Assembly (NCBI GenBank): GCA_028868305.1
Contig: JAGWUS010000035.1
Location: 1-40,132, forward strand
From: Burkholderiales bacterium
Lineage (GTDB): Bacteria > Pseudomonadota > Gammaproteobacteria > Burkholderiales > Burkholderiaceae_C
Length of the DNA stretch: 40,132 bases
Reading direction: 5' to 3'
Below are positions 1 to 28,094 of this stretch, piece by piece (within the stretch, counting starts at the first letter, position 1; every line of letters starts with the position of its first letter). Made by a program: the position numbers and the translations under genes. The notes under the pieces are model-generated. The model saw only the letters and a program-made list of their open reading frames with translations. It was not told where the DNA came from and did no database searches.

Positions 1-1577
1 CGGCGCAAAAGATCGGCCAGGTTGTATTCATGGTCGATGGCCTTGCCCAGCACGCGCTCAGACTCCGATGCCGGCAGGTTCTTGGGGTTGACCCAAATAG
101 AGCGCAGGCGTTCTGTTTCACGTGAAACCGCATCGCGCTTGCGGCAAAAAACTTCCCAACGAACATCGTCCACCAAGCCGAACTTGCGGCCGGTCTCGGT
201 CAGACGGGCGTCGGCGTTGTCTTCGCGTAGCTGCAGCCGGAACTCCGCTCGGCTGGTGAACATGCGATAGGGCTCGGTCACGCCCTTGGTGATCAGGTCA
301 TCGACCAGGACACCGAGGTAGGCTTCATCGCGCGCTGGCACCCAGGCACTCTGTTCCTTGCACTGCAGCGCAGCATTGATGCCGGCAAACATGCCTTGTG
401 CCGCCGCCTCTTCATAGCCGGTGGTGCCGTTGATCTGGCCGGCAAAAAACAGGCCGCCAATCTGGCGCGTCTCGAAACTGCTCTTCAAACTGCGCGGGTC
501 GAAGTAGTCGTACTCGATGGCGTAGCCGGGGCGCAGGATGTGTGCGTTCTCCAGCCCGGCCATGCTGCGCACCAGCGCGTACTGGATGTCAAACGGCAGG
601 CTGGTGCTGATGCCGTTGGGGTAGTACTCATGCGTGGTCAGGCCTTCGGGTTCCAGAAAGATCTGGTGGCTGTCCTTGTCGGCAAAGCGGTTGATCTTGT
701 CTTCCACACTCGGGCAATAGCGCGGGCCCACGCCTTCAATCTTGCCGGTGAACATCGGGCTGCGGTCGAAGCCGCTGCGGATGATGTCGTGGGTGCGCTC
801 GTTGGTATGGGTGATCCAGCACGACATTTGTTGCGGGTGCATCTCCACTTTGCCCATGAAACTGAACACTGGCATCGTCGCGCTCATGCCGCCGGGCATA
901 CCATCCCCGGGCTGCTCCTGGCATTTTGAAAAGTCGATGGTGCGGCCATCCAGCCGTGGTGGTGTGCCGGTTTTCAGGCGCCCCTGCGGCAGCTTGAGTT
1001 CTTTCAAACGCGCACTCAGCGACACGGCCGGCGGATCCCCTGCCCTGCCCGCAGCGTAGTTGTTCAGGCCCACATGGATCTTGCCGTCCAGAAACGTGCC
1101 TGCCGTCAGCACCACGGTTTTGGCGCGGAAGCGGATGCCGATCTGGGTGACGGCTCCGACCACGCGCGCACCGTCGCCATCGCCTTCCACCATCAGGTCG
1201 TCGACCGCCTGCTGGAACAGCCAGAGGTTGGGCTGGTTCTCGAGCATGCGACGAATGGCCGCCTTGTACAGAATGCGGTCCGCCTGCGCACGGGTGGCGC
1301 GCACGGCCGGGCCCTTGCTGGAGTTGAGGATACGAAACTGGATACCGGCCTCGTCGGTCGCAAGCGCCATGGCGCCGCCCATGGCGTCCACTTCTTTCAC
1401 CAGATGGCCTTTGCCAATGCCGCCGATGGACGGGTTACAACTCATCTGCCCCAGGGTCTCGATGTTGTGGGAGAGCAGCAAAGTCTTGCAGCCCATGCGG
1501 GCGGCCGCCAGGGCAGCCTCGGTTCCAGCATGGCCGCCGCCAACGACGATGACGTCGAAATCTTGTGGGTAAAGCAT
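1..1577 (-). CDS. mnmG: tRNA uridine-5-carboxymethylaminomethyl modification enzyme MnmG (GidA), 3' end outside window
   Basis: FAD-dependent enzyme that, with MnmE, installs the carboxymethylaminomethyl group on U34 of certain tRNAs in the cytoplasm. The reading frame opens with [20 protein letters not shown], the Rossmann FAD-binding start of the family, and continues with [20 protein letters not shown] and [16 protein letters not shown], all hallmark MnmG segments. About 525 codons are visible; the family is usually about 630-650 residues, so roughly the last fifth lies beyond the left edge. The start is the ATG at 1575-1577; no strong ribosome binding site is seen. A GGGGG/CCCCC hairpin (1606-1619) lies between this gene and the upstream LysR gene. 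A parS site is embedded in the coding sequence at 114-129. In many bacteria mnmG sits near rsmG-parA-parB close to the origin; those genes would be expected to the left but are not seen here. Confidence 0.97.
114..129. other. parS, ParB-binding centromere-like site inside mnmG
   Basis: The sequence TGTTTCACGTGAAACC matches the widely conserved chromosomal parS consensus TGTTTCACGTGAAACA at 15 of 16 positions, and its inner 14 bases (115-128) are a perfect palindrome. parS is bound by ParB, which with ParA and SMC segregates the origin region. Embedding in a gene is normal for parS because the site is compatible with coding. It shows that this window lies in the origin-proximal part of a chromosome. 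Confidence 0.9.
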
Positions 1578-24240: not shown

Positions 24241-25800
24241 TCAGGCGCCCAGCACCCGGTTCTTGCCAGCCCGCTTAGCCAGGTACATGGCCTGGTCTGC
24301 GCGTCGGATGGCTTCCATGCCAGTTTCTCCATCGTTCAATTGCGCCACCCCGGCACTGAAGGTAATCAGTATCTTTTCTGCACCGGCCAGAAAAAACCGT
24401 TTGGTCAGTTCCCTCTGCAAACGGGTCATGGCTTCAATACCCTTATCCAGCGGTGTATCTGGCAACAACACTACAAATTCCTCTCCGCCAAAGCGCGCTA
24501 GCGTATCCTGCGGACGCATGCAATCGCGTGCCACTGTAGCCAGATGATTCAGTGCGTTGTCACCCATTGAGTGTCCGAGCGAATCATTGAGTTTTTTGAA
24601 GTTGTCAATATCCAGTAGTGCCATGCTCAAGGGAGTTTCCTTGCGGCGCACGGTGGAAAGTTCACGCTCAAGGGCTTCATCCAGTCCTTTGCGGTTAAGG
24701 GTTCCAGTGAGTGAATCATGCCGTGCCTCTGAACTCACACGGTCAAGCTCCTTGTGCAATTTGACCAGCTCTGCTTCCGTTCTGGTCGCCTGCTCCCGCA
24801 TGGCACTGAGCTCATCACGCGTTGCCAGACTTTCGCTGGCCATGCGGCTGGTAGTCCCTACTACATCCTTAAGCACCGGCGCAATTTCTGCCATGGATTT
24901 AGCCTGTTCAATCAAACGTGCGCTTTCTTCCAACTTATCGTGGTAAATCCCCGTGGACTGCGTCATATCAGACAGGCGCTCTATGAACGAGGCCAGCATG
25001 TCGCGCATTTCGTTCTGGGCGGCCACCGTGCGCTCCTTGGCTTCCTTCTGCTTGAAAATCACGTCCTTGAGACGCCACTCCACGTCATCCAGACGCCGCA
25101 GGCTCAAAGGCGGCGCAGACGCTGTCATCAGTGCCTCCATCTGTCCCTTGAGCCACTGCTCCTCTGGGCTGAGATCAGCAATGTTTTCAAACACCAGATG
25201 CAGCAGTTTCAGCAGGGAGTTGTGAATCTCTGCCTGGTCTTCCGCGACAAACGACAAGCGATGACTGTAGTTCGCCAACATCAATTTCTGGGTCGCGACG
25301 TCGACAGTTGGATCCCTCAGTGCCTTGAGCATAGTGGTCGTCTGCTCCTTGAAACGCTCATCGTCCGTTCCCAATGCCGGCAATACGTATTCGATAAGCC
25401 GGGCAATCTGGGCCATGAACTCAGCCGTCAAGGCCGGTACAACCATCGTCGTTTCACTTGCCACCGTACTGGTCAAGGGCGCATTGCCTGATGGCTGGGC
25501 ATCTGCACTACCCACCGGAACAAAACTCCCATAGGACACCAGGGCGGCTTTCACACCTTCCCAATTCATGCGATCAATAGCGTATTCCAACAGACCACGC
25601 TGTTTTTGCTGGCCTGGTGTTTTGGCAGGCAGCGCCCGGACAATTTCACGCAGGTTGTCCATGGGAAAGTGCGGTACCTGGGGAATGCCCGCAATTTCGT
25701 TGTAGATGGACTGGTAATTCAGCGGTGTGGGCGCAAGCTTGCGCGCAGTCAATTGCTTGAGAGTTTCACGCGCTATTTCAAAAGGTTTCTTGTCGCTCAT
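24241..25800 (-). CDS. Soluble GGDEF diguanylate cyclase with long helical N-terminus
   Basis: 519-residue cytoplasmic protein. Residues 1-345 lack membrane segments and are predominantly helical, with a coiled-coil-like stretch (MREQATRTEAELVKLHKELD) leading into the GGDEF domain. The catalytic motif is GGEEF at about 436-440 in ARFGGEEFVVLLPDTP, with an upstream RPQD inhibitory site (RxxD) five residues before it. It is therefore a likely active, product-inhibited cyclase. The N-terminal part resembles the diguanylate cyclases of Burkholderiales whose sensory domain is undefined. The gene reads away from the AT-rich region at 25801-26242, the opposite direction to minC. Confidence 0.9.
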   Translation of the reverse strand: MSDKKPFEIARETLKQLTARKLAPTPLNYQSIYNEIAGIPQVPHFPMDNLREIVRALPAKTPGQQKQRGLLEYAIDRMNWEGVKAALVSYGSFVPVGSADAQPSGNAPLTSTVASETTMVVPALTAEFMAQIARLIEYVLPALGTDDERFKEQTTTMLKALRDPTVDVATQKLMLANYSHRLSFVAEDQAEIHNSLLKLLHLVFENIADLSPEEQWLKGQMEALMTASAPPLSLRRLDDVEWRLKDVIFKQKEAKERTVAAQNEMRDMLASFIERLSDMTQSTGIYHDKLEESARLIEQAKSMAEIAPVLKDVVGTTSRMASESLATRDELSAMREQATRTEAELVKLHKELDRVSSEARHDSLTGTLNRKGLDEALERELSTVRRKETPLSMALLDIDNFKKLNDSLGHSMGDNALNHLATVARDCMRPQDTLARFGGEEFVVLLPDTPLDKGIEAMTRLQRELTKRFFLAGAEKILITFSAGVAQLNDGETGMEAIRRADQAMYLAKRAGKNRVLGA

Positions 25801-26242
25801 ACCCGCCCCATCAAATCACCACACATTGTCAGGCACAAACTGGTTTGCCAGTAAGTCCTTTTCTAACACGTATACGACGGACTCTGTCAATGTAAAAACC
25901 TGTGCATATATCTCGCATAAGCAGATAGTTATCCACAGGCTTGACGACTAGAGGAAAGTTATCCAATTTCCTACGACAGCACCAACGCAAGGTCACCCAC
26001 ACATCTTGAGATGCTGCAACTCCTTGATTTTGAATGGAAAAAACAGCTTGTCCACAAAAAATGACATTCCTCTAGCTACTACTACTATGGTTTAAATAGA
26101 AAAAAGAAAGTAATACAGACAGAAACATGGACGCAAATAAATACAAATAAAGCTTCTCTGCTTCCCCCTGCATTGGCAAGGCAATCAAGTAAGATTTGGG
26201 CTCTGAAGTGCGCTGCACCTTTTCACCGGTTTGGTTGTCCCC
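25801..26242. other. Candidate chromosomal origin of replication (oriC)
   Basis: This is the only gene-free stretch over 300 bases. DnaA boxes (TTATNCACA): 25901-25909 minus (8/9), 25929-25937 plus (TTATCCACA, 9/9), 25959-25967 plus (7/9), 25993-26001 plus (7/9), 26048-26056 plus (TTGTCCACA, 8/9). CTACTACTACTA at 26076-26087 resembles a DnaA-trio, followed by a 70-base stretch (26091-26160) of 27% GC, a possible unwinding element. Genes diverge on each side, and top-strand G/C bias changes sign across it. An alternative is a DnaA-controlled minC promoter. No dnaA, dnaN or rpmH gene is adjacent. Confidence 0.6.
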
Positions 26243-26983
26243 ATGTCTGTTTCGTTCGAGATAAAAAGCGCACAACTTCCCCTGGTTGCCCTGCTTCTTA
26301 AAACCGGTAATCTGGCCAGCATTGCCGCGGATCTTCTCCAGCAATTCGGGCCAGAAGGTGAAAACCCTGATTTCTTTGAAAAGGATGCACTTGTCATCGA
26401 TTTATCCCAGCTGGATGCGGATGCTTCTGTGGAAGAATTGCCGTTTCTGCTGGGTGCGGTGCGCGCATGCAGCCTTGTTCCCGTAGCAGTGCGCAGCGCA
26501 AAGGGTGACTGGCTGAAAGCTGCCAAGGACGCAGGACTGGTGGAAGCCCCCACCGAGATTGTCAGACCACGTGCCGAGATTGTGCACACCACGGGGACGG
26601 TGGAAATGGTCAAGGAAGTGGTGCGAGAGGTTCCGGGGCCTGCCACCATGGTGGTGGACAAACCCCTGCGTTCGGGTCAGAAAATATATGCCCGCGGTGC
26701 CGATCTGGTAGTGCTGGCCATGGTCAACCAGGGTGCTGAAGTGGTGGCTGACGGCAACATCCATGTGTATGCGCCCCTGCGTGGAAAAGTCATGGCGGGC
26801 GCGCGTGGCAACACCCAGGCAAGGATTTTTTCGCTGTGTCTGGAGCCCGAACTCATCTCTATCGCCGGTGTGTACCGAACCAGCGAAAACCCTTTGCCCA
26901 AAGACATTCAGGGCAAAGCCGCACAAGTCCGTTTGAGCAACGATGGGCAGGACAAACTGCTCATTGAAGCGCTCAAAACCTGA
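26243..26983 (+). CDS. minC: Septum site-determining protein MinC
   Basis: 246-residue inhibitor of FtsZ polymerisation that, carried by MinD, blocks division at the poles. The N-terminal FtsZ-binding domain (about 1-110; SVSFEIKSAQLPLVALLL) and the C-terminal beta-helix dimerisation and MinD-binding domain (about 140-246) are recognised, the latter by RSGQKIYARGADLVVLAMVN, then GAEVVADGNIHVYAPLRGK and ISIAGVYRTSE. The ATG at 26243 is used; an in-frame TTG lies 12 bases upstream. It is the first gene of minCDE and begins directly right of the candidate origin. Confidence 0.96.
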   Translation: MSVSFEIKSAQLPLVALLLKTGNLASIAADLLQQFGPEGENPDFFEKDALVIDLSQLDADASVEELPFLLGAVRACSLVPVAVRSAKGDWLKAAKDAGLVEAPTEIVRPRAEIVHTTGTVEMVKEVVREVPGPATMVVDKPLRSGQKIYARGADLVVLAMVNQGAEVVADGNIHVYAPLRGKVMAGARGNTQARIFSLCLEPELISIAGVYRTSENPLPKDIQGKAAQVRLSNDGQDKLLIEALKT

Positions 26984-27014: not shown

Positions 27015-27830
27015 ATGGCAAAAATCATCGTGGTGACTTCCGGCAAAGGCGGCGTGGGAAAAACCACCACCAGCGCTAGTTTTGCAACCGGTTTGGCCTT
27101 GCGCGGGCACAAGACAGCAGTGATCGATTTTGACGTCGGCCTGCGCAATCTTGATCTGATCATGGGCTGTGAGCGCCGTGTGGTGTACGACCTGATCAAC
27201 GTCATTCATGGCGAAGCCAACCTGAACCAGGCACTCATCAAGGACAAGCAGTGCGACAACCTGTTCGTACTGGCAGCATCGCAAACCCGCGACAAGGATG
27301 CATTAACCCAGGACGGCGTTGAAAAGGTCCTGAACGATCTGGCTGCCATGGGTTTCGAATACATCGTGTGCGACTCCCCCGCGGGCATCGAAACCGGTGC
27401 CTTGATGGCCATGCATTTTGCCGATGAGGCGCTGGTGGTGACCAACCCAGAAGTGTCTTCGGTGCGCGATTCCGACCGCATTCTGGGCATGCTGGCTAGC
27501 AAGACCAAACGGGCGATGGAAGGTGCAGATCCCATCAAGGAACATCTACTCATCACCCGCTACAACCCGGCCCGTGTCGACCAGGGGCAGATGCTGTCGC
27601 TGGAAGACATTCAGGACATTCTACGTATCAAGCTGATTGGCGTCATACCTGAAAGCGAATCTGTATTGCAGGCCTCCAACCAGGGTGTGCCAGCGGTGCA
27701 CATGCAGGGTAGCGATGTGTCTGAAGCCTACAAGGATGTGATTGACCGCTTTCTTGGTGCAGACAAGCCCATGCGCTTTACCGAAGCACCCAAACAGGGT
27801 CTGCTGAAGCGTCTCTTCGGAGGGAAATAA
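27015..27830 (+). CDS. minD: Septum site-determining ATPase MinD
   Basis: 271-residue membrane-cycling ATPase of the ParA/MinD family that recruits MinC and oscillates under MinE. The deviant Walker A motif SGKGGVGKTTTS has the signature lysine K11 and K16; the switch regions follow as DFDVGLRNLDLIMG and DSPAGIETGA. The C-terminal amphipathic membrane-targeting helix is present (GLLKRLFGGK). The ATG at 27015 gives the canonical MAKIIVVTSGKGG start; the open frame from 26943 overlaps minC and is rejected. Gaps: 31 bases after minC, 3 before minE. Confidence 0.97.
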   Translation: MAKIIVVTSGKGGVGKTTTSASFATGLALRGHKTAVIDFDVGLRNLDLIMGCERRVVYDLINVIHGEANLNQALIKDKQCDNLFVLAASQTRDKDALTQDGVEKVLNDLAAMGFEYIVCDSPAGIETGALMAMHFADEALVVTNPEVSSVRDSDRILGMLASKTKRAMEGADPIKEHLLITRYNPARVDQGQMLSLEDIQDILRIKLIGVIPESESVLQASNQGVPAVHMQGSDVSEAYKDVIDRFLGADKPMRFTEAPKQGLLKRLFGGK

Positions 27831-27833
27831 GGC

Positions 27834-28094
27834 ATGTCATTTCTCTCGTTTCTCCTGGGTGAGAAGAAGAAAACCGCCAGTGTGGCCAAGGAACGTCTGC
27901 AGATCATCCTGGCCCATGAACGCAGTGGTCGCAATGCGGCCGAGCCGGATTATCTGCCCGACTTGCAGCGTGAACTGGTGGCGGTGATCAGCAAGTACGT
28001 AAAGATTAATCCCGCAGACATCAAGGTCAACCTGGAGCGCCAGGACAATCTCGAGGTGTTGGAAGTCAAGATAGAACTGCCAGAAGCCCGATAA
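27834..28094 (+). CDS. minE: Cell division topological specificity factor MinE
   Basis: 86-residue protein that stimulates MinD ATPase and restricts MinCD to the poles. The N-terminal amphipathic and anti-MinCD helix ([20 protein letters not shown], then [10 protein letters not shown]) and the C-terminal beta-rich dimerisation domain ([20 protein letters not shown]) are intact. GGAGGG at 27819-27824, inside the end of minD, provides a strong ribosome binding site. It is the last gene of the min operon. Confidence 0.96.

What the first reader, a model, noticed from the sequence alone, without database searches (positions are those of the whole stretch)
25801..26242. Candidate chromosomal origin beside minCDE rather than beside dnaA
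The only long gene-free stretch contains a perfect DnaA box (25929-25937), two 8/9 boxes, two 7/9 boxes, an AT-rich block (27% GC over 26091-26160), and divergent genes on both sides. In a hand count of ten 60-base lines to the left and nine to the right, top-strand counts were G172/C203 on the left and G184/C140 on the right; the shift held separately for plus-strand and minus-strand genes. The lines were chosen by eye, so this is indicative only. A parS site lies 26 kb away, as expected near an origin. In most betaproteobacteria described the origin is next to dnaA; a minCDE-linked origin would tie division-site control to the origin region.
Basis: partly seen in the sequence, partly recalled or inferred. 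Interest (0 to 1): 0.8.

Follow-up and report, generated by a model that had tools for sequence, protein, structure and literature searches.

The report
Chromosome origin relocated beside minCDE
The gap next to the cell-division genes minCDE carries a conserved DNA module that is very likely the chromosome's replication origin; in related bacteria the same module lies beside dnaA, so the origin appears to have moved between gene neighbourhoods.

Summary
The gap 25801-26242 between a GGDEF gene and minCDE holds a 195-bp module (25900-26094): two divergent DnaA boxes 28 bp apart, two weak boxes, an IHF-like site, a third box, four DnaA-trios (CTACTACTACTA) and the least stable 60 bp of the window. 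Box numbers alone are at chance level; the conserved arrangement is not. A profile of the module matches upstream of minC in 29 of 30 genus loci (the miss is a contig end) and somewhere in 141 of 150 family genomes. It matches none of the dnaA stretches tested in this genome and four relatives. In seven genomes checked gene by gene, five from other families, it lies in the dnaA-dnaN gap, a classical oriC place. Of 114 family genomes with coordinates, 41 carry it beside dnaA, 17 beside minC, 56 elsewhere. GC skew changes at the module and not at dnaA in four genus members and in a genome where the two lie 183 kb apart. Against: in relatives the cumulative minimum lies 1-47 kb from the module, and two of four further genomes gave weak or no skew signal. 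Verdict: very likely oriC, relocated from dnaA. No initiation assay or coverage data were available.

The parts
25900..26094 (+). oriC module as a whole (profile R1 match)
   Evidence: E 7.7e-31, the only match in the genome; the window is one of the 52 rows of the profile
25901..25909 (-). DnaA box 1 (ATATGCACA)
   Evidence: within 2 mismatches in 74 of 76 cores
25929..25937 (+). DnaA box 2 (TTATCCACA, perfect), divergent from box 1, starts 28 bp apart
   Evidence: within 1 mismatch in 76 of 76 cores, which was the selection criterion
25959..25967 (+). weak DnaA box (TTATCCAAT, 7/9)
   Evidence: read; conserved columns
25993..26001 (+). weak DnaA box (TCACCCACA, 7/9)
   Evidence: read; conserved columns
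26017..26029 (-). IHF-like site (CAACTCCTTGATT, reverse complement of the recalled consensus WATCAANNNNTTR)
   Evidence: exact in 46 of 76 cores, within 1 mismatch in 73 of 76, exact in 0.4% of shuffled cores
26048..26056 (+). DnaA box 3 (TTGTCCACA), the box nearest the unwinding side
   Evidence: within 2 mismatches in 67 of 76 cores
26076..26087 (-). four DnaA-trios (CTACTACTACTA on top = 3'-GAT-5' repeats below)
   Evidence: exact in 48 of 76 cores, within 1 mismatch in 73 of 76; motif from PMC8287927
26056..26115 (.). probable duplex-unwinding element: least stable 60-mer of the window, 25% GC
26091..26160 (.).
24241..25800 (-). GGDEF protein gene, left neighbour
26243..26983 (+). minC, right neighbour (an alternative start lies at 26231)
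27015..27830 (+). minD
27834..28094 (+). minE
114..129 (.). parS-like site TGTTTCACGTGAAACC, 25.8 kb from the module
   Evidence: four more sites with 1-2 mismatches on contig C77

Best explanation
The module at 25900-26094 upstream of minC is very likely the chromosomal replication origin (oriC), where DnaA would bind the box array, IHF would bend the DNA between the boxes, and DnaA spreading from box 3 onto the trios would open the AT-rich side next to minC for helicase loading. The parts, their order and spacing, and their conservation are shown; DnaA binding, IHF binding, melting and initiation are inferred. The module matches in sequence the one that sits between dnaA and dnaN in other families, and the dnaA-dnaN gap of this genome no longer matches it, so the origin has probably been relocated from dnaA rather than invented anew. 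Genomes with both a dnaA-side and a minC-side copy suggest duplication followed by loss of one copy as the route (inferred).
For: Anatomy in the window. Arrangement in 76 cores (window plus 75 of 80 named minC loci): box 2 within 1 mismatch 76 (selection criterion), box 1 within 2 mismatches 74, box 3 within 2 mismatches 67, trio within 1 mismatch 73; IHF-like site within 1 mismatch 73; alignment. Profile R1 matches 29 of 30 genus minC loci (some of the same genomes supplied profile rows); the miss L013 ends 139 bp upstream of the match; it matches none of four minC loci that lack the array (L143, L146, L157, L158) and none of the own dnaA contig C64 or of C77, and none of the dnaA stretches of four genus members or of eight minC loci from other families at E up to 1. 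One match in G000. Independent use of the profile: 93 of 300 genomes of the order, 141 of 150 of the family. In 7 genomes the match lies between called dnaA and dnaN genes (G300, G330 in the family; G112, G261, G067, G039, G049 outside it); in two more (G254, G255) it lies next to dnaA but dnaN was not called properly. Skew: left of the module against module-to-dnaA p = 1.6e-4, 1.2e-4, 4e-6, 0.0063 in G007, G001, G033, G034; module-to-dnaA against beyond dnaA p = 0.62, 0.86, 0.90, 0.86. G270, module beside minC and 183 kb from dnaA: 6 of 8 stretches negative on the left, 8 of 9 positive between, 3 of 3 positive beyond dnaA. G090, module 380 kb from dnaA: 7 of 7 stretches positive from the module past dnaA. 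G007: 27 sampled stretches put the sign changes near 0.6 and 2.5 Mb of 3.89 Mb. parS clusters 26-37 kb from minC in G007, G001, G033.
Against: The cumulative skew minimum of relatives is not at the module: about 31 kb (G007), 28 (G001), 19 (G033), 47 (G034), 18 (G018) and 1 kb (G015) away, and the strand-corrected fit prefers 78-89 kb rather than 57-61 kb in G007, G001 and G033, and fails in G034 (wrong sign) and G018 (68 kb). A run of plus-strand, C-ending genes 11-28 kb to the right in G007 may explain the flat zone (inference). G334 shows no skew signal, G085 a weak one (6 of 10 negative left, 6 of 10 positive right) and G090 only 2 of 3 negative on the left. Right of the module in the window only 6 of 14 bins are positive. 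The distance from box 3 to the first trio is 19 bp here, above the 16 bp allowed in PMC8287927. No functional data.
Confidence: 0.91

Rival explanations
1. The module is a DnaA-binding regulatory or titration site (DnaA-controlled minC promoter, or a datA/DARS-like site), and initiation takes place elsewhere, perhaps at the skew minimum 20-30 kb towards dnaA.
For: It lies directly in the minC upstream region, and the cumulative minimum in relatives lies off the module.
Against: The module occurs far from minC in most family genomes (41 of 114 beside dnaA, 56 of 114 at neither place); it is absent from four minC loci and from eight minC loci of other families; it carries trios and the least stable DNA of the window. 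In the seven fetched stretches of G007 (140 kb) the strongest box cluster is the one at minC.
Confidence: 0.05
2. The origin is beside dnaA as usual, and the minC module is a relic or a weak second origin.
For: A box pair upstream of dnaA, CTATCCACA and TTATCCACA 49 bp apart, is conserved in five of five dnaA regions read.
Against: No skew change at dnaA in four genus members (p = 0.62-0.90) or in G270 (p = 0.71); the profile finds nothing in the dnaA stretches tested, and the own dnaA-dnaN gap is 123 bp. Two boxes without trio fit autoregulation of dnaA better (inference).
Confidence: 0.03
3. Initiation uses two sites, the minC module and a second region, giving the flat skew zone between them.
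For: The near-zero skew between the module and a point 20-30 kb away in G007, G001 and G033; 42 of 141 family genomes with a match carry two or more modules (counted from the table).
Against: G000, G001, G007, G033 and G034 have a single match, and no second module was found in the fetched stretches of the flat zone of G007 (L052, L053).
Confidence: 0.04

Closest known systems
oriC in the dnaA-dnaN gap of other Burkholderiales (here G330, G300, G112, G261, G067, G039, G049)
   Same: Found by the same profile, with boxes, IHF-like region, box 3 and trio in the same order over most or part of the model.
   Different: Gene neighbourhood: dnaA and dnaN there, GGDEF and minC here.
Escherichia coli oriC
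   Same: An origin away from dnaA, with DnaA boxes, an IHF site between the boxes and a box next to the unwinding element (E. coli layout recalled; PMC4285127 passages say that E. coli oriC lies in another gene context).
   Different: E. coli oriC lies near gidA and mioC (passage of PMC10225481 for Y. pestis 'like that in E. coli'); different spacing; the trios here are perfect repeats.
Cupriavidus metallidurans CH34 chromosome 1
   Same: Authors report the GC-skew transition about 90 kb from dnaA, preceded by a 213-nt region with 3 perfect DnaA boxes (passages of PMC2864759): a published case of an origin candidate away from dnaA in the same order.
   Different: Not reported next to minC in those passages; I did not test that strain with the profile.
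Burkholderia cenocepacia J2315 chromosome 1 origin region
   Same: DnaA boxes, IHF site, AT-rich block; the authors call the exact origin position uncertain (passages of PMC4948915).
   Different: Gene context not given in the passages seen.
Basal unwinding system (BUS) of Bacillus subtilis
   Same: DnaA box followed by repeats of 3'-GAT-5' and unwinding DNA (passages of PMC8287927).

Membership tests
DnaA-dependent bacterial oriC | Cluster of DnaA boxes in a non-coding gap | tested here: met
   conserved in 75 of 80 named minC loci plus the window
DnaA-dependent bacterial oriC | Easily unwound AT-rich element next to the boxes | tested here: met
   least stable 60-mer of the window, 26056-26115; stability computed, melting not measured
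DnaA-dependent bacterial oriC | Strand-composition switch at the site | tested here: inconclusive
   Best split of the window at 26 kb and a change at the module in five relatives, but the cumulative minimum in six relatives is 1-47 kb away, with weak or no signal in G085 and G334
DnaA-dependent bacterial oriC | Same sequence module as origins at the classical dnaA-dnaN place | tested here: met
DnaA-dependent bacterial oriC | Neighbouring parS sites | tested here: met
   window 114-129; clusters in relatives
DnaA-dependent bacterial oriC | Initiation of replication in the cell | not testable with these tools
   no coverage, ChIP or autonomous-replication data
oriC adjacent to dnaA | dnaA next door | tested here: not met
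   dnaA lies on contig C64; 50-60 kb from minC in G007, G001, G033
Basal unwinding system (BUS) | At least three DnaA-trios | tested here: met
   four in the window, within 1 mismatch of (CTA)4 in 73 of 76 cores
Basal unwinding system (BUS) | Spacer of at most 16 bp between box and trios (search rule of PMC8287927) | tested here: not met
   19 bp in the window; works like a BUS, but not filed as one by that rule
IHF-assisted origin | IHF consensus between boxes | tested here: met
   (consensus recalled); IHF genes and binding not tested

The most novel reading that the evidence does not exclude
In this family oriC behaves as a relocating module: it is copied to a new intergenic site, both copies coexist for a time, and the old one is lost; the minC neighbourhood has received it more than once, so that firing of the origin and doubling of the Min division-site genes coincide in time and place.
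Probability: 0.35. Interest if true: 0.82.

Novelty: new variant of a known kind. Interest (0 to 1): 0.66.

Why it matters
Origins are usually looked for, and chromosomes numbered, at dnaA. Here one recognisable origin module is found beside dnaA, beside minCDE and at other places within one family, which would make origin relocation a comparative system: the same DnaA-binding module can be followed through different neighbourhoods, with genomes that carry two copies as candidate intermediates. It would also place the Min division-site genes at the first-replicated point of the chromosome in the Rhodoferax group, which makes a link between initiation and division-site control testable. Practically, coverage-based growth-rate estimates that assume a dnaA origin would be off by 50 kb or more in such genomes.

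Tried and rejected
Box counting alone was rejected as evidence: numbers are at chance level. Cumulative skew minimum as a fine locator was rejected: it moves by tens of kb among close relatives and is confounded with gene strand and codon use. Strand-corrected four-fold-site skew in 20-kb stretches was too noisy to use. GGDEF-minC synteny as the cause of conservation was rejected: L161 has another upstream gene and keeps the module, and G330, G300 and others have it with no minC next door. minC itself as the carrier was rejected: four minC loci lack it (L143, L146, L157, L158), one of them (L157) in a genome whose other minC locus (L155) has it. A DnaA tree of 51 rows (quick search, 12 of 48 inner branches well supported, outgroup on long branches) did not settle how often the module moved: minC placement needs at least 7 changes on the tree, 3 forced by well-supported branches; dnaA against moved needs 8. 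Placement counts use 114 of the 141 genomes with a match, because the table was cut and 27 weaker genomes had no coordinates; two weak MinC rows were left out; the cut-off was 1.5 kb, so near misses such as G359 (1,527 bp) and G347 count as elsewhere. Paper searches for a minC-linked, relocated or Comamonadaceae origin found none in the held open library; subscription papers and the DoriC tables themselves were not searchable. Of eight papers I saw passages found by term (PMC8287927, PMC10225481, PMC6595937, PMC4285127, PMC4948915, PMC6323995, PMC2864759, PMC4572682); of all others the search listing only.

Full report
What was checked. The window is contig C80 of a 94-contig, 3.48-Mb genome. 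Named relatives of its MinC are mostly Rhodoferax; one unnamed genus relative, G033, has the contig length and minC place of Rhodoferax bucti GSA243-2, so I take the genome to be of the Rhodoferax group (inference).

The gap 25801-26242 lies between a divergent GGDEF gene and minC-minD-minE. It holds the only perfect DnaA box of the window and two 8/9 boxes by TTWTNCACA, and the least stable 60 bp of the 40 kb (26056-26115). Box numbers as such are not above chance. The window's skew splits best at 26 kb, on plus-strand and minus-strand genes separately.

Anatomy. Read against relatives, the gap contains an ordered module: box 1 (minus) and box 2 (plus) starting 28 bp apart; weak boxes at 25959 and 25993; an IHF-like site at 26017-26029; box 3 at 26048, 119 bp after box 2; CTACTACTACTA at 26076-26087; then AT-rich DNA. 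In 76 cores (the window and 75 of 80 named minC loci) box 1 is within 2 mismatches in 74, box 3 within 2 mismatches in 67, the trio within 1 mismatch in 73 and exact in 48; the IHF-like site is exact in 46 and within 1 mismatch in 73, against 0.4% exact in shuffled cores. Box 2 within 1 mismatch was the selection criterion. The five loci without the module are L136, cut 139 bp upstream of the match, and L143, L146, L157 and L158; the three of these whose genes could be called have other upstream genes. L157 is a second minC locus in an assembly whose other one, L155, has the module.

A profile (R1, 52 cores, sequence only) finds the module in 29 of 30 genus minC loci, not in the four loci above, and not on the own dnaA contig C64 or on C77. 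It finds none in the dnaA stretches of G007, G001, G033 and G034, nor at minC in eight genomes of other families, at E up to 1. Some genus genomes also supplied rows of the profile, so the genus count is not independent; the counts outside the genus are. It matches once in G000 (E 7.7e-31), in 93 of 300 genomes of the order and in 141 of 150 of the family.

Where it lies elsewhere. Of 21 loci examined, seven have the match between called dnaA and dnaN genes: G300 and G330 in the family, G112, G261, G067, G039 and G049 outside it; in G254 and G255 it lies next to dnaA but dnaN was not called properly. dnaA-dnaN is a classical origin place (PMC4285127 passages). This is the strongest argument that the module is oriC. 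In the family, of 114 genomes with listed coordinates, 41 have it within 1.5 kb 3' of dnaA's domain, 17 within 1.5 kb 5' of minC's C-terminal domain, 56 at neither place; 27 further genomes with a match had no coordinates listed. 42 of the 141 have two or more matches (counted from the table). Two are telling: G460 has one copy in the dnaA-dnaN gap and a better-scoring one 2.2 kb upstream of minC, with two genes between; G450 has one copy immediately 5' of minC and one ending 229 bp before the end of its 4,936,681-bp contig, whose first gene is dnaA, that is on the 5' side of dnaA if the contig is circular.

Skew. dnaA is on another contig here and 50-60 kb from minC in G007, G001 and G033, with a parS cluster on the other side of minC. 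Comparing 2-kb bins, skew left of the module differs from skew between module and dnaA (p = 1.6e-4, 1.2e-4, 4e-6, 0.0063 in G007, G001, G033, G034), whereas between and beyond dnaA do not differ (p = 0.62-0.90). In G270, with the module at minC and dnaA 183 kb away, 6 of 8 stretches left are negative, 8 of 9 between are positive and 3 of 3 beyond dnaA are positive; p = 0.0013 and 0.71. In G090, 380 kb from dnaA, 7 of 7 stretches from the module past dnaA are positive, 2 of 3 before it negative. G085 is weak (6 of 10 and 6 of 10), G334 gives nothing. Twenty-seven stretches of G007 place the sign changes near 0.6 Mb and 2.5 Mb, half a chromosome apart. Bins are not independent, so the p values are guides.

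Against. The cumulative minimum in relatives lies about 31, 28, 19, 47, 18 and 1 kb from the module (G007, G001, G033, G034, G018, G015), and a strand-corrected fit agrees with the window (26-29 kb) and G015 (53 against 47-48 kb) but not with the others. In G007 a run of plus-strand, C-ending genes lies in the flat zone, a possible but unproven cause. The spacer of box 3 to trios, 19 bp, exceeds the 16-bp rule of the BUS survey.

Mechanism (inferred). DnaA would load on the box array, IHF would bend the DNA between the weak boxes and box 3, and DnaA would spread from box 3 onto the trio strand, opening the AT-rich DNA on the minC side. Because the module matches the dnaA-dnaN one of other families while this genome's dnaA-dnaN gap (123 bp) no longer matches it, the simplest history is relocation, probably by copying and loss. 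A DnaA tree is too weak to count the moves: at least 7 changes for the minC state, 3 of them forced by well-supported branches.

Known and new. Origins away from dnaA are known (E. coli), and in this order C. metallidurans CH34 was reported with a skew transition about 90 kb from dnaA near three perfect boxes (PMC2864759 passages). A minC-linked origin, or one module followed through several places in a family, was not found in nine searches of the held library. I file it as a new variant of a known kind.

Noticed in passing
family genomes: 42 of 141 genomes with a match carry two or more oriC-like modules, some in tandem (G015, 449 bp apart), some a few kb apart (G459, G446, G465).
   Followed up: partly
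L143, L146, L157 (L158 not gene-called): Relatives with a minCDE locus in another neighbourhood and without the origin module; in one assembly (L155 and L157) two minC loci coexist. L146 also has two minD-like genes in a row.
   Followed up: partly
dnaA upstream regions of G007, G001, G033, G034 and own contig C64: A conserved pair of DnaA boxes (CTATCCACA minus, TTATCCACA plus, starts 49 bp apart) lies upstream of dnaA, in five of five regions read; it looks like autoregulation.
   Followed up: no
G043, G092, G214, G334 (family f8) and G090 (f5): The module also lies away from dnaA in at least two other families (about 7 to 380 kb), again with several copies in family f8.
   Followed up: partly
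window:37496-40081: 861-aa open reading frame without an NCBIfam match at E 1e-10.
   Followed up: no
window:16329-18845: Copper-type P-type ATPase by NCBIfam subfamily.
   Followed up: no
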